Source: Nostoc sp. CHAB 5834 (GTDB lineage: Bacteria > Cyanobacteriota > Cyanobacteriia > Cyanobacteriales > Nostocaceae). From it: a stretch of 5,331 bases of DNA. Both the position numbers and the translations under genes were made by a program. Shown piece after piece: positions 1 to 5,331 of this stretch. The stretch's first letter is position 1. The number at the start of each line of letters is the position of its first letter. The stretch covers positions 1-5,331 of the forward strand of contig JAIVFU010000285.1 of the NCBI GenBank assembly GCA_020829485.1. The letters are read 5' to 3'. The notes beneath the pieces were generated by a model. That model ran no database searches. It was not told where the DNA came from and saw only the letters and a list, made by a program, of their open reading frames with translations.

Positions 1-286
1 TCAGACAGGTGAGCGATTCGACCGGGTATGCGTCGAGCCCCACCTTCGCAGTGAACAGGTGAAGCTTCTTGCGCTTCGTGTATGCGCACAATCCCAACTC
101 AACCGGGGGCTCTGCCAATACGATGCTAGTCTCTTCCTGCAGCTCGCGCAGCGCCGCGGTCAACGGTTGCTCTCCAGGGTCGGCTCCGCCCTTGGGAATG
201 TCCCAGCAGTCCTGCCCCGTCACGTGGCCCAGCAAAATTTCGGTGCGAGGGTTGACTAGGACAAACCCATATGAAATGAGGCTCAT
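1..286 (-). CDS. Nudix hydrolase, N-terminal part (runs off the left edge)
   Basis: Ninety-five codons are visible from an ATG at 286, with no stop before the window edge, so the C-terminus is missing. The protein starts MSLISYGFVLVN. It has a tryptophan plus IPKGG lead-in to a Nudix box at about residues 34-56: G-x5-E-x7-R-E-L-x-E-E, the Mg2+-binding and catalytic signature for hydrolysing nucleoside diphosphates linked to another moiety. The glycine that normally follows the EEx part of the box is serine here (EETSI). After the box comes a KKLHLFTAKV strand, as in the common 'DIPKG...LHLF' bacterial Nudix proteins of about 140-150 residues. The substrate cannot be assigned; a (di)nucleoside polyphosphate or a capped RNA end are possibilities. 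The start codon overlaps the smpB stop (TGATG), which suggests translational coupling downstream of smpB. Confidence 0.88.
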   Translation of the reverse strand, partial: MSLISYGFVLVNPRTEILLGHVTGQDCWDIPKGGADPGEQPLTAALRELQEETSIVLAEPPVELGLCAYTKRKKLHLFTAKVGLDAYPVESLTCL

Positions 287-762
287 CACAAGTCCTTGAT
301 TGCACGTGCTGTTTCGCGTGTCTGGTCGCGCTCTTTGAGAGCAGCCCGCTTGTCCACAAGCTTCTTCCCCTTCGCCAGTCCAATGACCACCTTCAACTTG
401 CGCGTCTTCGTCAGCTCCAGGGGGACGATGGTGTACCCCCGCTCCGAAACCTTGCGGCTAAGCTTGTTCAACTCTGCCTTGTGCAGCAGCAGCTTGCGGG
501 GACGGACGGGCAGGCGCTCGACGAGCAGTCCTTTGTCGGAGTTGGCCAAGGGCGTAATGGTCAGGTCGTGGAGGAAGGCGTCGCCGTCCTCCAAGCGGAC
601 GTAGGCGGCACCTCCGTTGAAGTTCGCCTGCCCGGCCATGATGGCCTTCACTTCCCAGCCCATAAGCATCACCCCTGCTTCAAAGGTGTCTTCGATGACA
701 TAGAGGTGACGGGCTTGGCGGTTGTCGACCAAGGTCTTTGTTTGCAGCGCGGGTGTGTTCAT
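286..762 (-). CDS. smpB: SmpB, tmRNA-binding protein of trans-translation
   Basis: The product is 158 residues, normal for SmpB (E. coli has 160). SmpB binds the tRNA-like end of tmRNA, brings alanyl-tmRNA to ribosomes stalled without a stop codon, and places its C-terminal tail in the empty mRNA channel. Family landmarks in order: NRQARHLYVIEDTFEAG (14-30), GWEVK (35-39), PRKLLLHK (88-95), GYTIVPL (109-115), the LAKGKK segment (129-134), DKR (137-139), and a basic helical tail. Two basic positions of the usual 'SLRAGKAN' segment are replaced (AIMAGQAN, 40-47), so the protein is somewhat divergent. The ATG at 762 is the only plausible start, because an in-frame TAA lies six codons upstream with no other start codon between. 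The Shine-Dalgarno is weak. The gene is translationally coupled to the Nudix gene. Its RNA partner, a permuted tmRNA, lies at 4445-4750. Confidence 0.97.
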   Translation of the reverse strand: MNTPALQTKTLVDNRQARHLYVIEDTFEAGVMLMGWEVKAIMAGQANFNGGAAYVRLEDGDAFLHDLTITPLANSDKGLLVERLPVRPRKLLLHKAELNKLSRKVSERGYTIVPLELTKTRKLKVVIGLAKGKKLVDKRAALKERDQTRETARAIKDL

Positions 763-910: not shown

Positions 911-1540
911 TCAGGCAGCAACCGCACTTCGAGCAGTCGCGGCAGAGGGTGGCAAGAACTCCTGAGCCCACGCTTCGACTTTCTTGTTGGCAGCAATCAG
1001 CTCCGCAACCAACCCGGTGCAGGGATACTTCATGACCCGAATCCAGTCGAGACCCATTTGAGCAATCAACTCGAAGCGACGATAGTCAGGGCCCTTGCGC
1101 TTGCGTTCACGGGCCACTCGCAGAAGGTCCAGCAGCGCGAGTTCCGTCATTTCACAGAGGACTTTGTTGAGGGGCTCGGCCGCAGCGGAGCCCGGGCAGG
1201 TGCCGGCTGAGTCGATGCGGGCTCCCAAGTTGATGAGTTCGGCCCACTGGATGACTGTTTGGCCAGCACCGATGATTTCGGTAGCGCGGCTGACGGGTAA
1301 CCGCTCAAAGGTCATGCATACGTCCAGCGCAAGCTGAGCGCACGCGATTTGCTGACGAAGGATTTTTTGAGGCCGGGTCTTAGCGAGAGCCATCCCCTCA
1401 ATGGTGGCCAAGAGACAATCGGTAAGGTAGCCGAAGGCTTGCTCTACTTCCCGGATGTCCGAGCGAAAGATAGGCCGAGCGATAGCGGGCCGTTTCGTTT
1501 GCTGTCGAAGTCCGGAAAATCCGGGGTTGATTACAGCCAT
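911..1540 (-). CDS. Hypothetical helical protein, 209 residues
   Basis: I do not recognise this protein. It runs from MAVINPGFSG to a small, Ala/Ser-rich tail (SAATARSAVAA). Most of it looks alpha-helical and soluble, with no signal peptide and no obvious membrane segment. It has a basic stretch around residues 141-155 (RVARERKRK followed by DYRR) that could contact nucleic acid. It has six cysteines (42, 67, 75, 115, 129, 174) that do not form an evident zinc-binding pattern. The start at 1540 is preceded by a purine-rich GAAGAAAG that can serve as a weak ribosome-binding site. It lies 68 bp after the small Trp-rich gene and 148 bp before smpB, all on the minus strand, so the four genes could share a transcript. 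It is the longest open frame over this stretch on either strand. Confidence 0.68.
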   Translation of the reverse strand: MAVINPGFSGLRQQTKRPAIARPIFRSDIREVEQAFGYLTDCLLATIEGMALAKTRPQKILRQQIACAQLALDVCMTFERLPVSRATEIIGAGQTVIQWAELINLGARIDSAGTCPGSAAAEPLNKVLCEMTELALLDLLRVARERKRKGPDYRRFELIAQMGLDWIRVMKYPCTGLVAELIAANKKVEAWAQEFLPPSAATARSAVAA

Positions 1541-1974: not shown

Positions 1975-2571
1975 ATGCCTGAAATATTAAATAGCCGCGA
2001 GTATTGGGTAGCCAAAGCAATTGAATTCGTTCAGGGGCTTGGCCTGCCTGTGACAATCACGGAGGACGCGGACCTGACGGACACATTCATCCCCTATGTG
2101 CGGGTCGAAGCGGGCGGGCTGACCATTTCCGGAGCAGTGTTCCCGGGAGACATTCTTCACGAAGCCGGGCATCTGGCGGTCATCCCCGGGGACTTTCGGC
2201 CCCTGGCGGTGGACTCTCTGTCCGCGGTGATGGATGCGATGACGAAGTACATTGAAAACAATCCCCACGGTCTGACACAGTGGCCCGAGGACCCCCTGAG
2301 CAGGGCCATCCTGCAAAGTGGTGAAGCGGAGGCCACCGCATGGCAATACGCCGCTGCGCAAGCCATAGGACTGCCTGATGAGTGGCTTTTCCCAGCCGAC
2401 TCGTACGATGGTGGCTCTGCACATGTCCTGCAGGACCTAAAAACCCGGACCTACCTAGGTGTCAACGGTTTGCAAGCAGCGGGGTGGACGGTTCAACGCA
2501 AACAGGAGTATCGGGAATCGGCGGTATTTCCCGCATTGAACTTCTGGCTGCACCCCGGAACGCTCGCCTAG
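1975..2571 (+). CDS. HExxH metallopeptidase-like protein, 198 residues
   Basis: The central motif is GDILHEAGHLAV, with HEAGH at residues 62-66. It has the form of the zincin zinc-binding and catalytic site: two histidine ligands and a glutamate general base. A downstream SGEAEATAWQYAAAQ helix (115-129) offers E117 or E119 as a third ligand, in gluzincin style. The remaining C-terminal pattern (IGLPDEWLF, then YDGGS, then YLGVNGLQAAGW, ending in a short FPALNFWLHPG) fits a widespread proteobacterial family of about 200-residue uncharacterised putative metallopeptidases, as I recall it. There is no signal peptide or membrane segment, so it probably acts in the cytoplasm. The substrate is unknown. 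It has its own promoter and is not evidently in an operon with cysS, which begins 187 bp later. The start at ATG 1975 is supported by the promoter position. Confidence 0.82.
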   Translation: MPEILNSREYWVAKAIEFVQGLGLPVTITEDADLTDTFIPYVRVEAGGLTISGAVFPGDILHEAGHLAVIPGDFRPLAVDSLSAVMDAMTKYIENNPHGLTQWPEDPLSRAILQSGEAEATAWQYAAAQAIGLPDEWLFPADSYDGGSAHVLQDLKTRTYLGVNGLQAAGWTVQRKQEYRESAVFPALNFWLHPGTLA

Positions 2572-2758: not shown

Positions 2759-4069
2759 ATGAAACTCAAAGACTCTCTCACGGGCCTAAATAAGGCCGTC
2801 CTTCCGCATTCCGTATCCATCTACGCTTGCGGCATCACTCCCTACTCCGCATCGCACGTGGGCCACGCACGGACCTACGTAGTGTTCGACTTGCTCGCAA
2901 AGGTGCTCCGTGCTCAAGGCCACGAAGTCACGCTGGCGCGCAACATCACGGACATTGACGACAAAATCATCAACGAGGCCGCCAAGCAAGGCATCGAGTG
3001 GCATGAGCTGTCCGCACACTTCTCGGAGCTGAATCGGGGGCTCATGAGCCAGACAGGGCTCCAGGTGCCTCTGGAACCCAAAGCCAGCGACTACCTGGCG
3101 AACATCTTCCAACTCATCGAAGCGCTGCTCGGGCTGGGGCTGGCGTACGTCTCTGAAACGGGGGACGTGCGTTACCGAGTCCGGTCGTTCAAGGGTCGGC
3201 TTCTCATGCCTCACAAAGAGGGCTCTCTTCTGTCGGAGCAAGGGGTCACTCGGGTGGATGGCAGCGGCAAGGAGGACCTCCGCGACTTCGCGCTCTGGAA
3301 GCGTACCGGAGATGCCGACGTAGGCTTCAAGTCTCCGTGGGGCTGGGGGCGCCCCGGCTGGCACATCGAGTGCTCCGCCATGATTGGCGCCCTCTTTGGT
3401 GGCAGCGTGACGATTCACGGGGGCGGCGTGGACCTCAAGCACCCTCACCATGACGCGGAAATCCGCCAGAGCGAGCCTGTTTTCGGTAAGCCCCTTGCGG
3501 ACATTTGGATGCACAACGGGTCTGTCCTGAGCGAAGGCCAAAAGATGAGCAAGAGCTTGGGCAACTTCGTTACTTGGCAAGAAGCCCTGGACCAAGCAGA
3601 GGCGTTGGCGCCCGGCCGCGGCGGCGATTTGTTGCGCATCGCCATGTTGCAAGCGCACTGGCAGAAGCCCCTTGATTGGTCGCCGACCCTGCTTCACAGC
3701 ACCTTTGCAGAGCTGCAGCTGCTCACAAAGAACTTGTCTTCAGAACACCTGGAGAGCACTGACGCCACGGCTCTGGTTCAGCAGCTCGACGAAAACCTCA
3801 ACACGCCCGCAGCGTTTGTCTGGTTGCGCGCGCAGATGAAAGCCGGCAAACACGCCACCGTAGCCGCATCCCTGCGGTTCCTGGGCGTCGACGTGAAGGC
3901 CTGGGCCGATGCGCATAAACCGGCGCCCTCCCCTGTTGAGCATTCGGCTGAAATCAATGCGCTCATTAAGGAGCGAAACGAAGCGCGGCGGCAGAAGAAC
4001 TGGGCCAAGGCCGATGAGCTGAGGAAACGGCTGGCGGCGATGGGCGTTTCGCTAACCGACGCCCCTTAA
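2759..4069 (+). CDS. cysS: Cysteinyl-tRNA synthetase, compact
   Basis: This class I synthetase activates cysteine with ATP and charges tRNA-Cys. Its 436 residues compare with 461 in E. coli. Visible landmarks are ACGITPYSASHVGHAR (HIGH motif as HVGH, 33-36), RNITDIDDKI (61-70), GRPGWHIECSAM (197-208), GGGVDLKHPHHDAE (221-234) and QKMSKSLGNF (261-270). The zinc ligands of the E. coli enzyme (C28, C209, H234, E238) all have counterparts at a constant offset of four: C24, C205, H230 and E234. The C-terminal part keeps INALIKERNEARRQKNWAKAD and ends GVSLTDAP. The usual short end after this (about eight residues, GTxW-type) is missing. Unusual choices include P28 in GITPYS, which recalls the related cysteine ligase MshC, and HPHHDAE for the usual FPHHENE. 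The intact KMSKS and tRNA-binding end favour a true CysRS. It stands alone, without the usual chromosomal neighbours. Confidence 0.96.
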   Translation: MKLKDSLTGLNKAVLPHSVSIYACGITPYSASHVGHARTYVVFDLLAKVLRAQGHEVTLARNITDIDDKIINEAAKQGIEWHELSAHFSELNRGLMSQTGLQVPLEPKASDYLANIFQLIEALLGLGLAYVSETGDVRYRVRSFKGRLLMPHKEGSLLSEQGVTRVDGSGKEDLRDFALWKRTGDADVGFKSPWGWGRPGWHIECSAMIGALFGGSVTIHGGGVDLKHPHHDAEIRQSEPVFGKPLADIWMHNGSVLSEGQKMSKSLGNFVTWQEALDQAEALAPGRGGDLLRIAMLQAHWQKPLDWSPTLLHSTFAELQLLTKNLSSEHLESTDATALVQQLDENLNTPAAFVWLRAQMKAGKHATVAASLRFLGVDVKAWADAHKPAPSPVEHSAEINALIKERNEARRQKNWAKADELRKRLAAMGVSLTDAP

Positions 4070-4404: not shown

Positions 4405-4444
4405 TAAAAAATGAAAGCCCCCTCCTGTTTCCAAGAGGGGGCTT
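4405..4444 (-). terminator. Rho-independent terminator of ssrA
   Basis: On the minus strand, AAGCCCCCTC and GAGGGGGCTT form a perfect 10-bp, GC-rich stem (arms 4415-4424 and 4435-4444) with a 10-nt loop. It is followed by TTTCATTTTTT. It sits directly after the tmRNA coding piece. The T-tract on this side only makes it directional for the minus strand. Confidence 0.93.
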
Positions 4445-4653
4445 GAGAGGCGGTAGACTTTTACATGAACCGCGAAGAGATTGGGTAACAAGGCTCTCTT
4501 AAGCCCCACCGTCAAGCTTACGCAGCGAGTCGGATTTGGTCGTCATTGGCAGTTATGCCTTTGCTTGTTTTATTGGAATTGCTTCCAACCAGGTAGACGC
4601 CTGCCTGCGTTGCCGATTAAGCATTCTTCCCGCGTCGAATCCAATTCACCCCC
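4445..4653 (-). ncRNA. ssrA: tmRNA coding piece (5' half with tag frame)
   Basis: It begins GGGGGUGAAUUGGAUUCGAC, the conserved tmRNA 5' end. Visible helices are CAGG/CCUG (4603-4590) and a UUGGAA-GCAA-UUCCAA hairpin with a GNRA loop (4588-4573), both where pseudoknot PK1 normally lies. A UAAGC/GCUUA helix (4520-4516 with 4504-4500) contains the tag stop codon, as in P5. AAGAGA/UCUCUU and GCGGU/ACCGC hairpins follow, up to about 4450. The 3' end of the mature piece is uncertain. Confidence 0.85.
4518..4550 (-). other. ssrA: tmRNA tag-peptide reading frame
   Basis: The frame reads GCC AAU GAC GAC CAA AUC CGA CUC GCU GCG UAA, giving ANDDQIRLAA and then stop. With the alanine carried by tmRNA, the appended tag would be AANDDQIRLAA. 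The resume codon GCC follows AUAACU, matching the position of AUAGUC before the E. coli resume codon GCA. Start AND and end LAA match the family; LAA is the ClpX recognition end. The middle (DQIR) differs from E. coli ENYA. Confidence 0.9.
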
Positions 4654-4684
4654 ATCATGAATACCCTTGGGCAAAAGAAACTCA

Positions 4685-4750
4685 TGGTGGAGGTGCAGGG
4701 TCTCGAACCCTGATGCCCCGAAAATTCAACGTCACCGGAATTACAACGAT
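4685..4750 (-). ncRNA. ssrA: tmRNA acceptor piece (tRNA-like 3' half)
   Basis: The T arm is textbook: stem CAGGG/CCCUG (4712-4708 and 4700-4696) around the 7-nt loop UUCGAGA. Next come the acceptor strand CACCUCC, discriminator A (4688) and CCA (4687-4685). The piece is about 66 nt if transcription begins near 4750. SmpB and alanyl-tRNA synthetase would recognise this half. The 5' end is estimated from the -10 box. Confidence 0.88.
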
Positions 4751-4756
4751 AAACTA

Positions 4757-4762
4757 ATTATA
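4757..4762 (-). promoter_or_regulatory. ssrA promoter -10 box
   Basis: A perfect TATAAT on the minus strand (ATTATA on plus) predicts a start near 4750, just before the acceptor piece. The -35 position at 17 bp spacing reads TAGCAA (4785-4780), only three of six matches. The promoter therefore relies on its -10 and perhaps on the AT-rich sequence upstream. Confidence 0.7.
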
Positions 4763-4815
4763 GCGACAAAGGCTGAGGCTTGCTAGAGTTTTCACAAAAT
4801 ATTTCTGTATTCAAC

Positions 4816-4879: not shown

Positions 4880-5331
4880 ATGACGAAGTCTTCTGTCTCC
4901 CTGGCTGCAGCCCTGTCCACTTTTGCTAACGTGAAAGCCGACCCGTCTCTGACCAAAGGACGAAACATTATCGATGTCAGCAACCGCGTTGCGGTGAAAA
5001 CTGTGGCCATCGGAAAGTTCTTGACGGCAATCCGTAACTTGAAAGCAGTGCAGGTTCAACGAAATGACCTGTACCGCCTGACGAACGGCCTGGCGAAGCA
5101 TTTGGCGGAGTTCCAACTCCCTCAGACCGTCTTTCACCTGGTTCGATTTAAGGGTACGTGGTACCTTGCGGATGGCAACACCCGTAAGCGCTTTTGGTTG
5201 TCGAGCAATAGCTGCGATTTGCCTTCTCACGTGAACTTGGTCGTCTACGACGCCGAGACCCTGGAAGAAGTGAAGGCCATCTACAACTGCATCGACTCGC
5301 AGAAATCGAAGAAAACAAATAGAGACAGTCT
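4880..5331 (+). CDS. ParB/sulfiredoxin-fold-like DGNTR protein (runs off the right edge)
   Basis: One hundred and fifty codons are visible and the frame is still open at the edge. The start at ATG 4880 has a clear AGGA Shine-Dalgarno (4868-4871) 8 nt upstream. The informative part is residues 83-141: TVFHLVRFKGTWYLADGNTRKRFW, then a short loop, LPSHVNLVVYDAETLEEVKAIYN, then IDSQKS. The pattern 'strand, (V/A)DGNTR, W, P-x-x-V-x-hydrophobic-Y, then DS.S' fits ParB N-terminal-like (sulfiredoxin-fold) domains. DGNTR occupies the place of the G-x-x-R nucleotide or phosphate-binding motif. I associate versions ending in F/I-D-S with phage and mobile-element proteins of unknown role. No DNA-binding helix-turn-helix is visible so far; it may lie beyond the edge. 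It is divergent from ssrA across a 129-bp gap. Confidence 0.75.
   Translation, partial: MTKSSVSLAAALSTFANVKADPSLTKGRNIIDVSNRVAVKTVAIGKFLTAIRNLKAVQVQRNDLYRLTNGLAKHLAEFQLPQTVFHLVRFKGTWYLADGNTRKRFWLSSNSCDLPSHVNLVVYDAETLEEVKAIYNCIDSQKSKKTNRDS

What the first reader, a model, noticed from the sequence alone, without database searches (positions are those of the whole stretch)
4445..4750. Circularly permuted ssrA encoding a two-piece tmRNA
The tRNA-like 3' half lies upstream of the tag-coding 5' half on the minus strand, separated by 31 nt, with one -10 box before and one terminator after. The acceptor strands pair over all seven positions across the permutation, including G3:U70, so the order is not a chance adjacency. 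The form is known from three bacterial lineages but is uncommon. An ordinary tmRNA search could report only one half or miss it.
Basis: partly seen in the sequence, partly recalled or inferred. Interest (0 to 1): 0.75.

Follow-up and report, generated by a model that had tools for sequence, protein, structure and literature searches.

The report
Split tmRNA gene near its SmpB
This stretch carries a two-part version of the gene for the RNA that rescues stuck ribosomes, together with a gene for its partner protein, and both resemble copies carried on very large bacterial plasmids, so it looks like a ribosome-rescue kit that a mobile DNA element may bring with it.

Summary
ARAGORN reports a permuted tmRNA at 4427-4778(-), tag ANDDQIRLAA. 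Rfam passes both curated cut-offs (beta_tmRNA 93.9 bits against 84; tmRNA_permuted 92.4 against 47). All 7 acceptor pairs form, including G3:U70, across a 31-nt spacer. The helix joining the two pieces pairs 6 of 6; among relatives 21 of 31 do, against 36 of 818 swapped controls.

The permuted form is a known kind. The new part is the context. The window also encodes SmpB and CysRS, whose closest relatives among plasmid records lie on ~0.8-Mb plasmids of four Variovorax strains (70% and 65%). Both of the two that I opened carry a permuted tmRNA just before smpB. The window's SmpB falls in a separate deep clade (100/100); its tmRNA groups with the same elements (97/94; 86/97). Of 150 genomes of a Burkholderiales sample, 134 have one-piece tmRNA and 4 a permuted hit, one doubtful.

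Best reading: a working two-piece tmRNA with its own SmpB on a giant plasmid-like element. Cleavage, expression and plasmid residence were not tested.

The parts
4757..4762 (-). -10 box TATAAT; no convincing -35
   Evidence: sequence; same 8-nt distance to H2 as TATACT in L083 and L168; aligned to the -10 columns of the beta_tmRNA model; no sigma-70 site in the scan
4685..4748 (-). tRNA-like 3' piece (acceptor piece, about 64 nt): H2 5' strand, T arm, acceptor 3' strand, discriminator A, encoded CCA
4743..4748 (-). H2 5' strand CGUUGU, pairs with 4613-4608
   Evidence: 6 of 6 pairs, covaries among relatives
4689..4695 (-). acceptor stem, 3' strand CACCUCC (U70 = 4691)
4654..4684 (-). 31-nt spacer, predicted hairpin stacked on the acceptor stem; presumed to be removed in processing
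   Evidence: length; fold. Removal is inferred.
4647..4653 (-). acceptor stem, 5' strand GGGGGUG (G3 = 4651); presumed 5' end of the coding piece
4608..4613 (-). H2 3' strand GCAACG, pairs with 4748-4743 and would hold the two pieces together
   Evidence: not formed in the single-strand fold of the uncut precursor
4445..4653 (-). mRNA-like 5' piece (coding piece, about 190-210 nt); the exact 3' end is unknown
   Evidence: beta_tmRNA model ends at 4466; the terminator begins at 4444
4518..4550 (-). tag reading frame ANDDQIRLAA plus UAA, resume codon GCC
   Evidence: ARAGORN; translation
4415..4444 (-). intrinsic terminator, 13 pairs, T tail
286..762 (-). smpB, SsrA-binding protein, 158 aa, of a deep clade separate from the sampled genome-contig SmpB
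   Evidence: TIGR00086 143.6 bits against 119.1 and NF003843 161.2 against 130; Pfam SmpB; tree
2759..4069 (+). cysS, cysteinyl-tRNA synthetase, 436 aa, 65% to the Variovorax plasmid copies
   Evidence: TIGR00435 353.5 bits against 340
2..289 (-). NUDIX hydrolase, cut by the contig end; 53% to a NUDIX gene of the Variovorax plasmid
1975..2571 (+). unknown 198-aa protein with about 37% homologues on megaplasmids; supports a plasmid context

Best explanation
This is a functional circularly permuted ssrA gene belonging to a giant plasmid-like element of Burkholderiales, carried together with the element's own SmpB. One transcript starts just after the TATAAT and ends at the terminator. Host tRNA-processing enzymes cut out the 31-nt spacer (RNase P at G4653; 3' processing to the encoded CCA at 4685), leaving an acceptor piece of about 64 nt and a coding piece of about 190-210 nt, held together by the acceptor stem and H2. 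AlaRS charges the RNA through G3:U70. The element's SmpB brings it to ribosomes stalled on broken mRNA, the nascent chain receives the ANDDQIRLAA tag, and the ribosome is released. The likely benefit is that the element keeps translation going independently of the host supply, as part of a kit that in relatives also holds tRNAs, CysRS, a release-factor-like protein and a peptidyl-tRNA hydrolase. Shown here: gene anatomy, family membership, pairing and its covariation, the SmpB gene in the same window, and relatedness to plasmid-borne pairs. Inferred: cleavage, charging, rescue, partnership with this SmpB, plasmid residence and benefit.
For: ARAGORN permuted tmRNA. Rfam above both cut-offs. Acceptor 7 of 7 with G3:U70; in relatives 24 of 31 read genes 7 of 7, distinct arms 9 of 13 own against 27 of 156 swapped. 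H2 6 of 6 in window, L083 and L168; 21 of 31 own against 36 of 818 swapped. -10 at the same spacing in all three. smpB in the same contig above NCBIfam cut-offs. SmpB 70% and CysRS 65% to 'plasmid 2' of four Variovorax strains. Both of the two opened carry a permuted tmRNA next to smpB, and the 129-kb contig of L168 carries one 1.1 kb from its smpB. SmpB clade 100/100 on a stem branch of 1.78. tmRNA grouping of window, L083 and L168: 97/94 with 16 of 32 rows, 86/97 with 23 of 32 rows. Homologues of both proteins share contig lengths: SmpB P0100 and CysRS P0155 both 366,419; P0017 and P0124 both 9,582 (same contig inferred from equal lengths). orf1975 homologues on 156 plasmid records. The Variovorax plasmid has 48 tRNA genes covering 20 amino acids.
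Against: The window is a 5,331-base contig with no whole genome held, so plasmid residence is inferred. Gene order is not conserved: in the window tmRNA and smpB are 3.7 kb apart with cysS between; in Variovorax they are adjacent and cysS lies about 165 kb away. Two window ORFs found no useful plasmid relative: orf4880 none, orf911 one weak record. The window's SmpB row has a long end branch (0.57). The three-way tmRNA grouping is below the starred level with 23 rows. H2 is absent from the single-strand fold of the uncut precursor. The Variovorax records are typed non-mobilizable by MOB-suite and listed as linear, although conjugation genes are annotated. No -35 box. No expression data.
Confidence: 0.7

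Rival explanations
1. It is the ordinary chromosomal ssrA of an uncultured betaproteobacterium with permuted tmRNA, and smpB and cysS are that organism's housekeeping copies.
For: Permuted tmRNAs occur in betaproteobacterial genomes (L190, L191; L205-L207). Three of these five have at least 4 of 6 -10 letters at exactly the window's place, a fourth has it one base off. smpB and cysS are housekeeping genes.
Against: Best relatives of SmpB and CysRS among plasmid records are the same four plasmids. Rfam score of 93.9 bits against 269.2 for L186, a viral-contig copy that groups with the genome copies. SmpB search at E<=1e-46: 0 of 399 genomes of the order; the same query gives 5.9e-67 in the Variovorax plasmid.
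Confidence: 0.13
2. It is a piece of a large phage rather than a plasmid; the phage uses the pair to keep ribosomes running during infection.
For: Permuted tmRNAs are common in viral contigs: 18 of 20 matches to an R-L-A-A tag pattern and 7 of 7 matches to a structural pattern. Achromobacter phage JWDelta has tag ANDDYIRLAA. L182 (369-kb viral contig) has tmRNA and SmpB side by side. L168 itself comes from a virus collection. Huge phages with tmRNA and SmpB are in print (PMC7162821, passage).
Against: No virion gene was recognised in the six ORFs scanned; the NUDIX ORF has a weak match to a portal family (E 0.0076) that I ascribe to its NUDIX domain. The nearest SmpB/CysRS carriers have ParB-like and F-type conjugation genes. 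Viral tmRNAs in the two trees other than L168 fall outside the window's group. At the window's -10 place only 1 of the 15 other viral copies has 4 or more matching letters.
Confidence: 0.12
3. It is a decayed or incidental copy, for example a remnant of integration into a host ssrA.
For: ssrA is a known integration site (PMC11915505, passage), and its score is lower than that of L186, a copy that groups with genome copies.
Against: Every part expected of the gene is intact, including both pieces, encoded CCA, tag frame with stop and terminator. Changes on both sides of H2 and the acceptor stem show constraint among relatives. An intact smpB is present.
Confidence: 0.04

Closest known systems
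Permuted (two-piece) tmRNA of betaproteobacteria, Rfam RF01850 beta_tmRNA and RF04321 tmRNA_permuted
   Same: Order of halves, spacer, acceptor stem with G3:U70, H2, tag frame, -10 position; both curated scores passed.
   Different: Divergent (93.9 bits against 269.2 for L186). The tag has Arg at the fourth place from the end (..RLAA), where all 10 genome-copy tags that I saw have Ala (7, two overlapping second ARAGORN calls there set aside; 3). Carried with a SmpB of another clade.
tmRNA + SmpB of Variovorax ~0.8-Mb 'plasmid 2' (NZ_LR594667.1, NZ_LR594660.1)
   Same: Permuted tmRNA, RLAA tag (ANESNFRLAA), -10 at the same spacing, SmpB 70% and CysRS 65% identical.
   Different: There tmRNA and smpB are adjacent and cysS is far away. 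RNA identity is 63% over 187 columns.
Two-piece tmRNA of phages (Melnitz, and 53 of 133 unique phage tmRNA structures predicted by ARAGORN, PMC9004378; JWDelta found here)
   Same: Mobile-element permuted tmRNA; JWDelta tag ANDDYIRLAA differs from the window's by one residue.
   Different: JWDelta's spacer is 207 nt and it does not group with the window. In the Melnitz passages read SmpB appears only in general background; whether Melnitz encodes it was not checked.
Translation-gene suites of huge phages and 'some large putative plasmids' (PMC7162821)
   Same: tmRNA and SmpB among translation genes on giant mobile elements (passage read).
   Different: That passage does not say whether the tmRNA is one-piece or two-piece, or which elements carry it.

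Membership tests
Permuted tmRNA (RF04321 / RF01850) | score above the curated cut-off | tested here: met
   92.4 against 47 and 93.9 against 84 bits
Permuted tmRNA (RF04321 / RF01850) | tRNA-like 3' half encoded upstream of the 5' half with a short spacer | tested here: met
   31-nt spacer
Permuted tmRNA (RF04321 / RF01850) | acceptor stem of 7 pairs with G3:U70 across the permutation | tested here: met
   7 of 7
Permuted tmRNA (RF04321 / RF01850) | helix H2 joining the two pieces | tested here: met
   6 of 6; relatives 21 of 31 against 36 of 818 swapped. Not present in the minimum-energy fold of the uncut strand.
Permuted tmRNA (RF04321 / RF01850) | tag reading frame ending in a degron-like tail | tested here: met
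   ANDDQIRLAA*; the degron function itself is untested
Permuted tmRNA (RF04321 / RF01850) | cleavage into two mature RNAs | not testable with these tools
   needs RNA
Permuted tmRNA (RF04321 / RF01850) | charging with alanine and rescue of stalled ribosomes | not testable with these tools
   needs a bench test
SmpB (TIGR00086, NF003843) | score above the curated cut-off | tested here: met
   143.6 against 119.1; 161.2 against 130; aligns to 15 distinct solved SsrA-binding protein sequences
Giant-plasmid tmRNA-SmpB lineage (Variovorax plasmid 2 type; name given here) | SmpB in the same clade | tested here: met
   63-row clade, 100/100
Giant-plasmid tmRNA-SmpB lineage (Variovorax plasmid 2 type; name given here) | tmRNA in the same group | tested here: met
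   97/94 with 16 of 32 rows; 86/97 with 23 of 32 rows, not at the starred level
Giant-plasmid tmRNA-SmpB lineage (Variovorax plasmid 2 type; name given here) | tmRNA directly beside smpB | tested here: not met
   3.7 kb apart in the window; adjacent in Variovorax; 1.1 kb in L168. Relatedness is therefore claimed by descent, not by gene order.
Giant-plasmid tmRNA-SmpB lineage (Variovorax plasmid 2 type; name given here) | lies on a large extrachromosomal element | not testable with these tools
   5,331-base contig, no genome held

The most novel reading that the evidence does not exclude
The element runs a second, private trans-translation system in its host: a two-piece tmRNA that is served by its own deep-branching SmpB and writes a different degron (..RLAA), working beside, and partly independently of, the host's one-piece tmRNA. 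It would let the element keep making proteins when host RNA is cut by toxins, anticodon nucleases or other defences.
Probability: 0.2. Interest if true: 0.72.

Novelty: new variant of a known kind. Interest (0 to 1): 0.45.

Why it matters
If the reading holds, giant plasmids carry their own ribosome-rescue pair, in a gene form that most sampled genomes of the likely host order do not use (134 of 150 have standard tmRNA over cut-off; 4 of 150 a permuted hit, one doubtful). That makes it possible to ask in one cell whether two tmRNA-SmpB pairs cross-talk, why mobile elements keep rescue factors, and whether the changed tag alters which protease clears tagged proteins. Variovorax strains carrying such plasmids are named in the records, so the question can be tested. 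It could also explain some permuted tmRNAs in metagenome contigs that are not chromosomal.

Tried and rejected
Chance adjacency of two tRNA-like halves: rejected by the covariance-model scores and covariation. DNA-level search in plasmids found nothing, and in phages only a 57-base match in JWDelta; protein searches were needed. A motif search in 398 genomes gave 2 hits; both regions held group II introns and no tmRNA, and I dropped them as chance without testing for SmpB there. A SmpB search of 399 genomes of the order gave 0 at E<=1e-46; the tool warns that an empty answer shows nothing without a known positive, and my positive controls are the records of L083 and L168. The permuted and standard tmRNA counts on 150 genomes used stricter filters that lose weak matches. 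I first thought that Arg in the tag marks all mobile copies: rejected, since 1 of 7 tags from the structure-only scan has it, and L168's tag ends in AVA(A) rather than RLAA. Arm-pairing scripts: one search chose the 5' arm by pairing (biased) and used wrong 3' anchors in some rows; misread L168 and L185; one search dropped 16 of 32 rows; one search dropped 9 of 32, misread L209, L213, L222, L224 and L226, and has its spacer column one too high; one search read 31 of 32, of which L212, L213, L222, L224, L226 and L228 show too few pairs because a wrong start was taken (L228 and the unread L206 pair 7 of 7), and L219 pairs 6 of 7. The chromosomal tmRNA of the Variovorax hosts could not be read (record not held). 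A paper id recalled from memory was not held.

Full report
WHAT IS THERE. On the minus strand between 4762 and 4415 the window holds a complete circularly permuted ssrA gene. ARAGORN calls it a permuted tmRNA at 4427-4778 with tag ANDDQIRLAA. In Rfam 15 it passes beta_tmRNA (93.9 bits, cut-off 84, E 3.2e-28) and tmRNA_permuted (92.4 bits, cut-off 47, E 1.3e-17). The order is: TATAAT 4762-4757; tRNA-like 3' piece 4748-4685 with T arm, acceptor strand and encoded CCA; 31-nt spacer 4684-4654; 5' piece from G4653 with the D-loop motif; tag frame 4550-4518; 13-pair terminator 4444-4415. No -35 was found.

MORE THAN CHANCE. The acceptor pairing alone is weak: 103 of 10,650 7-mers of the window could pair fully with GGGGGTG. 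The model scores decide. Across 32 permuted tmRNAs (window, one Variovorax plasmid, L168, L182, phage JWDelta, 22 other viral loci and 5 from reference genomes) a script read 31; 24 pair 7 of 7, L219 6 of 7, and six fail because the script took a wrong start (details under Tried and rejected). Of 13 distinct arm pairs so read, 9 are full in their own gene, against 27 of 156 when arms are swapped between genes. The script anchors on GGG and TCCA, so pairs 1-3, G3:U70 among them, are partly built in; the free test is pairs 4-7, which change on both sides. Helix H2, which would hold the two cut pieces together, pairs 6 of 6 in 21 of 31 genes at its expected place, the window, L083 and L168 among them, against 36 of 818 with swapped strands. 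It is CGTTGT/GCAACG in those three, but GGTTGT/GCAACC, TGCTGT/ACAGCA, TGCCGT/GCGGCA or GGTAGT/GCTACC elsewhere. Against: ten genes have only 3-5 of 6 there (two of the ten, L212 and L228, with a misread start), and the minimum-energy fold of the uncut strand lacks H2. That fold, terminator included, is better than all 100 shuffles (z -2.76) and shows the spacer as a hairpin stacked on the acceptor stem. The -10 lies at the same 8-nt distance from H2 in window (TATAAT), L083 (TATACT) and L168 (TATACT); of 5 reference-genome copies 3 have at least 4 of 6 letters there, of 15 other viral copies 1 (23 of the 32 genes).

THE PARTNER IN THE SAME WINDOW. The ORF at 286-762(-) is SmpB: TIGR00086 143.6 bits against 119.1 and NF003843 161.2 against 130, Pfam SmpB, and matches to 15 distinct solved SsrA-binding protein sequences. 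The ORF at 2759-4069(+) is a CysRS (353.5 bits against 340). A NUDIX gene is cut by the contig end. The ORFs at 911-1540(-), 1975-2571(+) and 4880-5329(+) have no Pfam match at E 0.001.

WHERE IT BELONGS. No genome is held for the window. Among 72,556 plasmid records the best SmpB matches (70%) and the best CysRS matches (65%) are the same four records, 'plasmid 2' of Variovorax strains SRS16, PBL-E5, WDL1 and PBL-H6, 0.80-0.84 Mb; the other 60 SmpB records are below 60%, those listed at most 46.7%. I opened two of the four: both have a permuted tmRNA, tag ANESNFRLAA, directly upstream of smpB. The NUDIX gene is 53% identical to one on the SRS16 plasmid, and the 1975-2571 protein has relatives on 156 plasmid records, 139 of them Pseudomonas, about 37% in those listed. 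Viral contigs gave one more member, L168, on a 129-kb contig: SmpB 61% and a permuted tmRNA 1.1 kb away, which ARAGORN missed. In a protein tree of 157 rows the window's SmpB lies in a 63-row clade (60 database rows, window, L083 and L168; 100/100; stem 1.78 changes per site) with none of the 80 genome-contig SmpBs (60 of the 119 other listed database hits were used; the root is a midpoint). The window's own row has a long end branch (0.57). The tmRNA tree also puts window, L083 and L168 together: 97/94 on 16 rows, 86/97 on 23 rows. Contig lengths equal for a SmpB and a CysRS homologue (366,419: P0100 and P0155; 9,582: P0017 and P0124) suggest other elements with both genes. Against a tight block: gene order differs. 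In Variovorax SRS16 smpB is at 385 kb and cysS at 218 kb; in the window they are 2 kb apart. The Variovorax records are typed non-mobilizable and listed as linear.

THE GENOMES OF THE ORDER LOOK DIFFERENT. Of 150 genomes drawn by the tool from the order of a Duganella genome (Burkholderiales; the tool does not name it), 134 have a standard one-piece tmRNA over the cut-off. Four have a permuted hit over the cut-off, one of which (G494, 51.4 bits) overlaps a strong standard hit, so three are convincing. The SmpB clade was not found in 399 genomes of the order at E<=1e-46, while the same query gives 5.9e-67 and 2.0e-55 in the plasmid and L168 records. The chromosomal tmRNA of the Variovorax hosts themselves could not be read.

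WHAT THE RELATIVES CARRY. The SRS16 plasmid has 48 tRNA genes by ARAGORN in the two stretches read (43, one without a readable anticodon, and 5), and they cover all 20 amino acids; the family scan of the whole record gives 48 matches, 47 over the cut-off. It also has a 172-aa RF1-like protein with GGQ, a Pth2-type peptidyl-tRNA hydrolase and a GluRS-like protein, both below the NCBIfam full-length cut-offs but above those of Pfam, RecA, and ParB-like and F-type conjugation genes. I read the annotation of about 216 kb of its 801 kb. The 129-kb contig has 36 tRNA matches. So the pair seems to belong to a wider translation kit.

HOW IT MOST LIKELY WORKS. One transcript, processed like a tRNA at both edges of the spacer; two RNAs held by the acceptor stem and H2; alanine through G3:U70; SmpB delivery; tagging; release. 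These steps follow from what is established for two-piece tmRNA (Keiler et al. 2000, recalled and seen only as cited in PMC11915505) and are not shown here. The tag ends in RLAA. In E. coli, ClpX contacts named in the passage read are the last two alanines, the leucine before them and the tyrosine two residues upstream (PMC7652416, passages), so the Arg need not abolish degradation; its effect is unknown. All 10 genome-copy tags that I saw have Ala there. R-L-A-A tags also occur in viral contigs: of 20 matches to a tag pattern, 18 lie in permuted tmRNAs, several of them near-identical (chosen for that tag, so this is no frequency).

KNOWN OR NEW. Permuted tmRNA is well known: 11,946 of 97,179 unique sequences (PMC11915505, passages; that main text does not hold the word plasmid). 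Phage two-piece tmRNAs are known (PMC9004378, passages). tmRNA and SmpB in huge phages, and 'analogous suites' of translation genes in some large putative plasmids, are in print (PMC7162821, passages). A Rhodoferax plasmid with 21 tRNAs is in print (PMC5374385, passage). I saw no listing of a paper on a plasmid-borne two-piece tmRNA with its own SmpB in the searches and 81 of the held library, which lacks most subscription papers; a comparative paper on these Variovorax strains, asked for by an id recalled from memory, is not held. Two other giant plasmids carry a standard tmRNA with smpB: P. silesiensis pPL1 (1.17 Mb, about 0.1 kb apart) and Curtobacterium pS16 (546 kb, tmRNA in a tRNA array, smpB elsewhere); of the other two opened, the Legionella adelaidensis record has a standard tmRNA far from smpB, with a chromosome-like neighbourhood, and the Sulfurovum record has none. 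The pair therefore seems to recur on giant plasmids, with the two-piece form in this lineage. Hence: new variant of a known kind.

VERDICT. The finding is real and correctly read as a permuted ssrA. Interest 0.45.

Noticed in passing
L082:2671-3055 (Achromobacter phage JWDelta, KF787094.1): A permuted tmRNA (95.8 bits) not listed among the record's features in this stretch; its two halves are separated by 207 nt whose ends look complementary by eye, tag ANDDYIRLAA, one residue from the window's. ARAGORN's tag for it looks wrong.
   Followed up: partly
NZ_LR594667.1 (L229, L204, L203, L083): Variovorax SRS16 'plasmid 2' carries 48 tRNA genes for all 20 amino acids, permuted tmRNA, SmpB, CysRS, a GluRS-like protein, a 172-aa GGQ release-factor-like protein, a Pth2-like protein and RecA.
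   Followed up: partly
L168:8679-8910: Permuted tmRNA found by Rfam (73.8 bits) but missed by ARAGORN, on a 129-kb IMG/VR contig with 36 tRNA matches whose SmpB groups with plasmid copies.
   Followed up: partly
L209-L228: 18 of 20 viral-contig matches to an R-L-A-A tag pattern are permuted tmRNAs; where ARAGORN reads the tag it ends in ANDSAYRLAA, ANDSEYRLAA or ANEGNFRLAA. Several have long spacers.
   Followed up: partly
L182:10001-10858: A 369-kb viral contig has SmpB (44%, one in-frame TAA in the matched stretch) and a permuted tmRNA (tag ANDSFYTEALAA) about 0.1 kb apart, plus 15 tRNAs by ARAGORN in the 20 kb held.
   Followed up: no
L233 and L235 (Pseudomonas silesiensis pPL1), L230 and L236 (Curtobacterium pS16): Two other giant plasmids carry a standard one-piece tmRNA and an smpB; on pPL1 they are about 0.1 kb apart, on pS16 the tmRNA sits in a tRNA array.
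   Followed up: partly
window:1975-2571: Unknown 198-aa protein without Pfam match but with relatives (about 37% in those listed) on 156 plasmid records, 139 of them Pseudomonas, mostly 0.4-0.5 Mb in the list.
   Followed up: no
window:4880-5329: ORF divergent from the tmRNA gene, match to phage family phrog_2615 of unknown function (E 2.7e-10), no plasmid relative.
   Followed up: no
L010, L182, L184, L188: tRNAs with anticodon CTA (labelled Pyl by ARAGORN) in viral contigs that carry cysS or permuted tmRNA, possibly TAG suppressors.
   Followed up: no
plasmids, cysS: CysRS relatives occur on 624 plasmid records, 503 of them Klebsiella, some annotated as cysS; those listed after Variovorax are 36-37% identical.
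   Followed up: no
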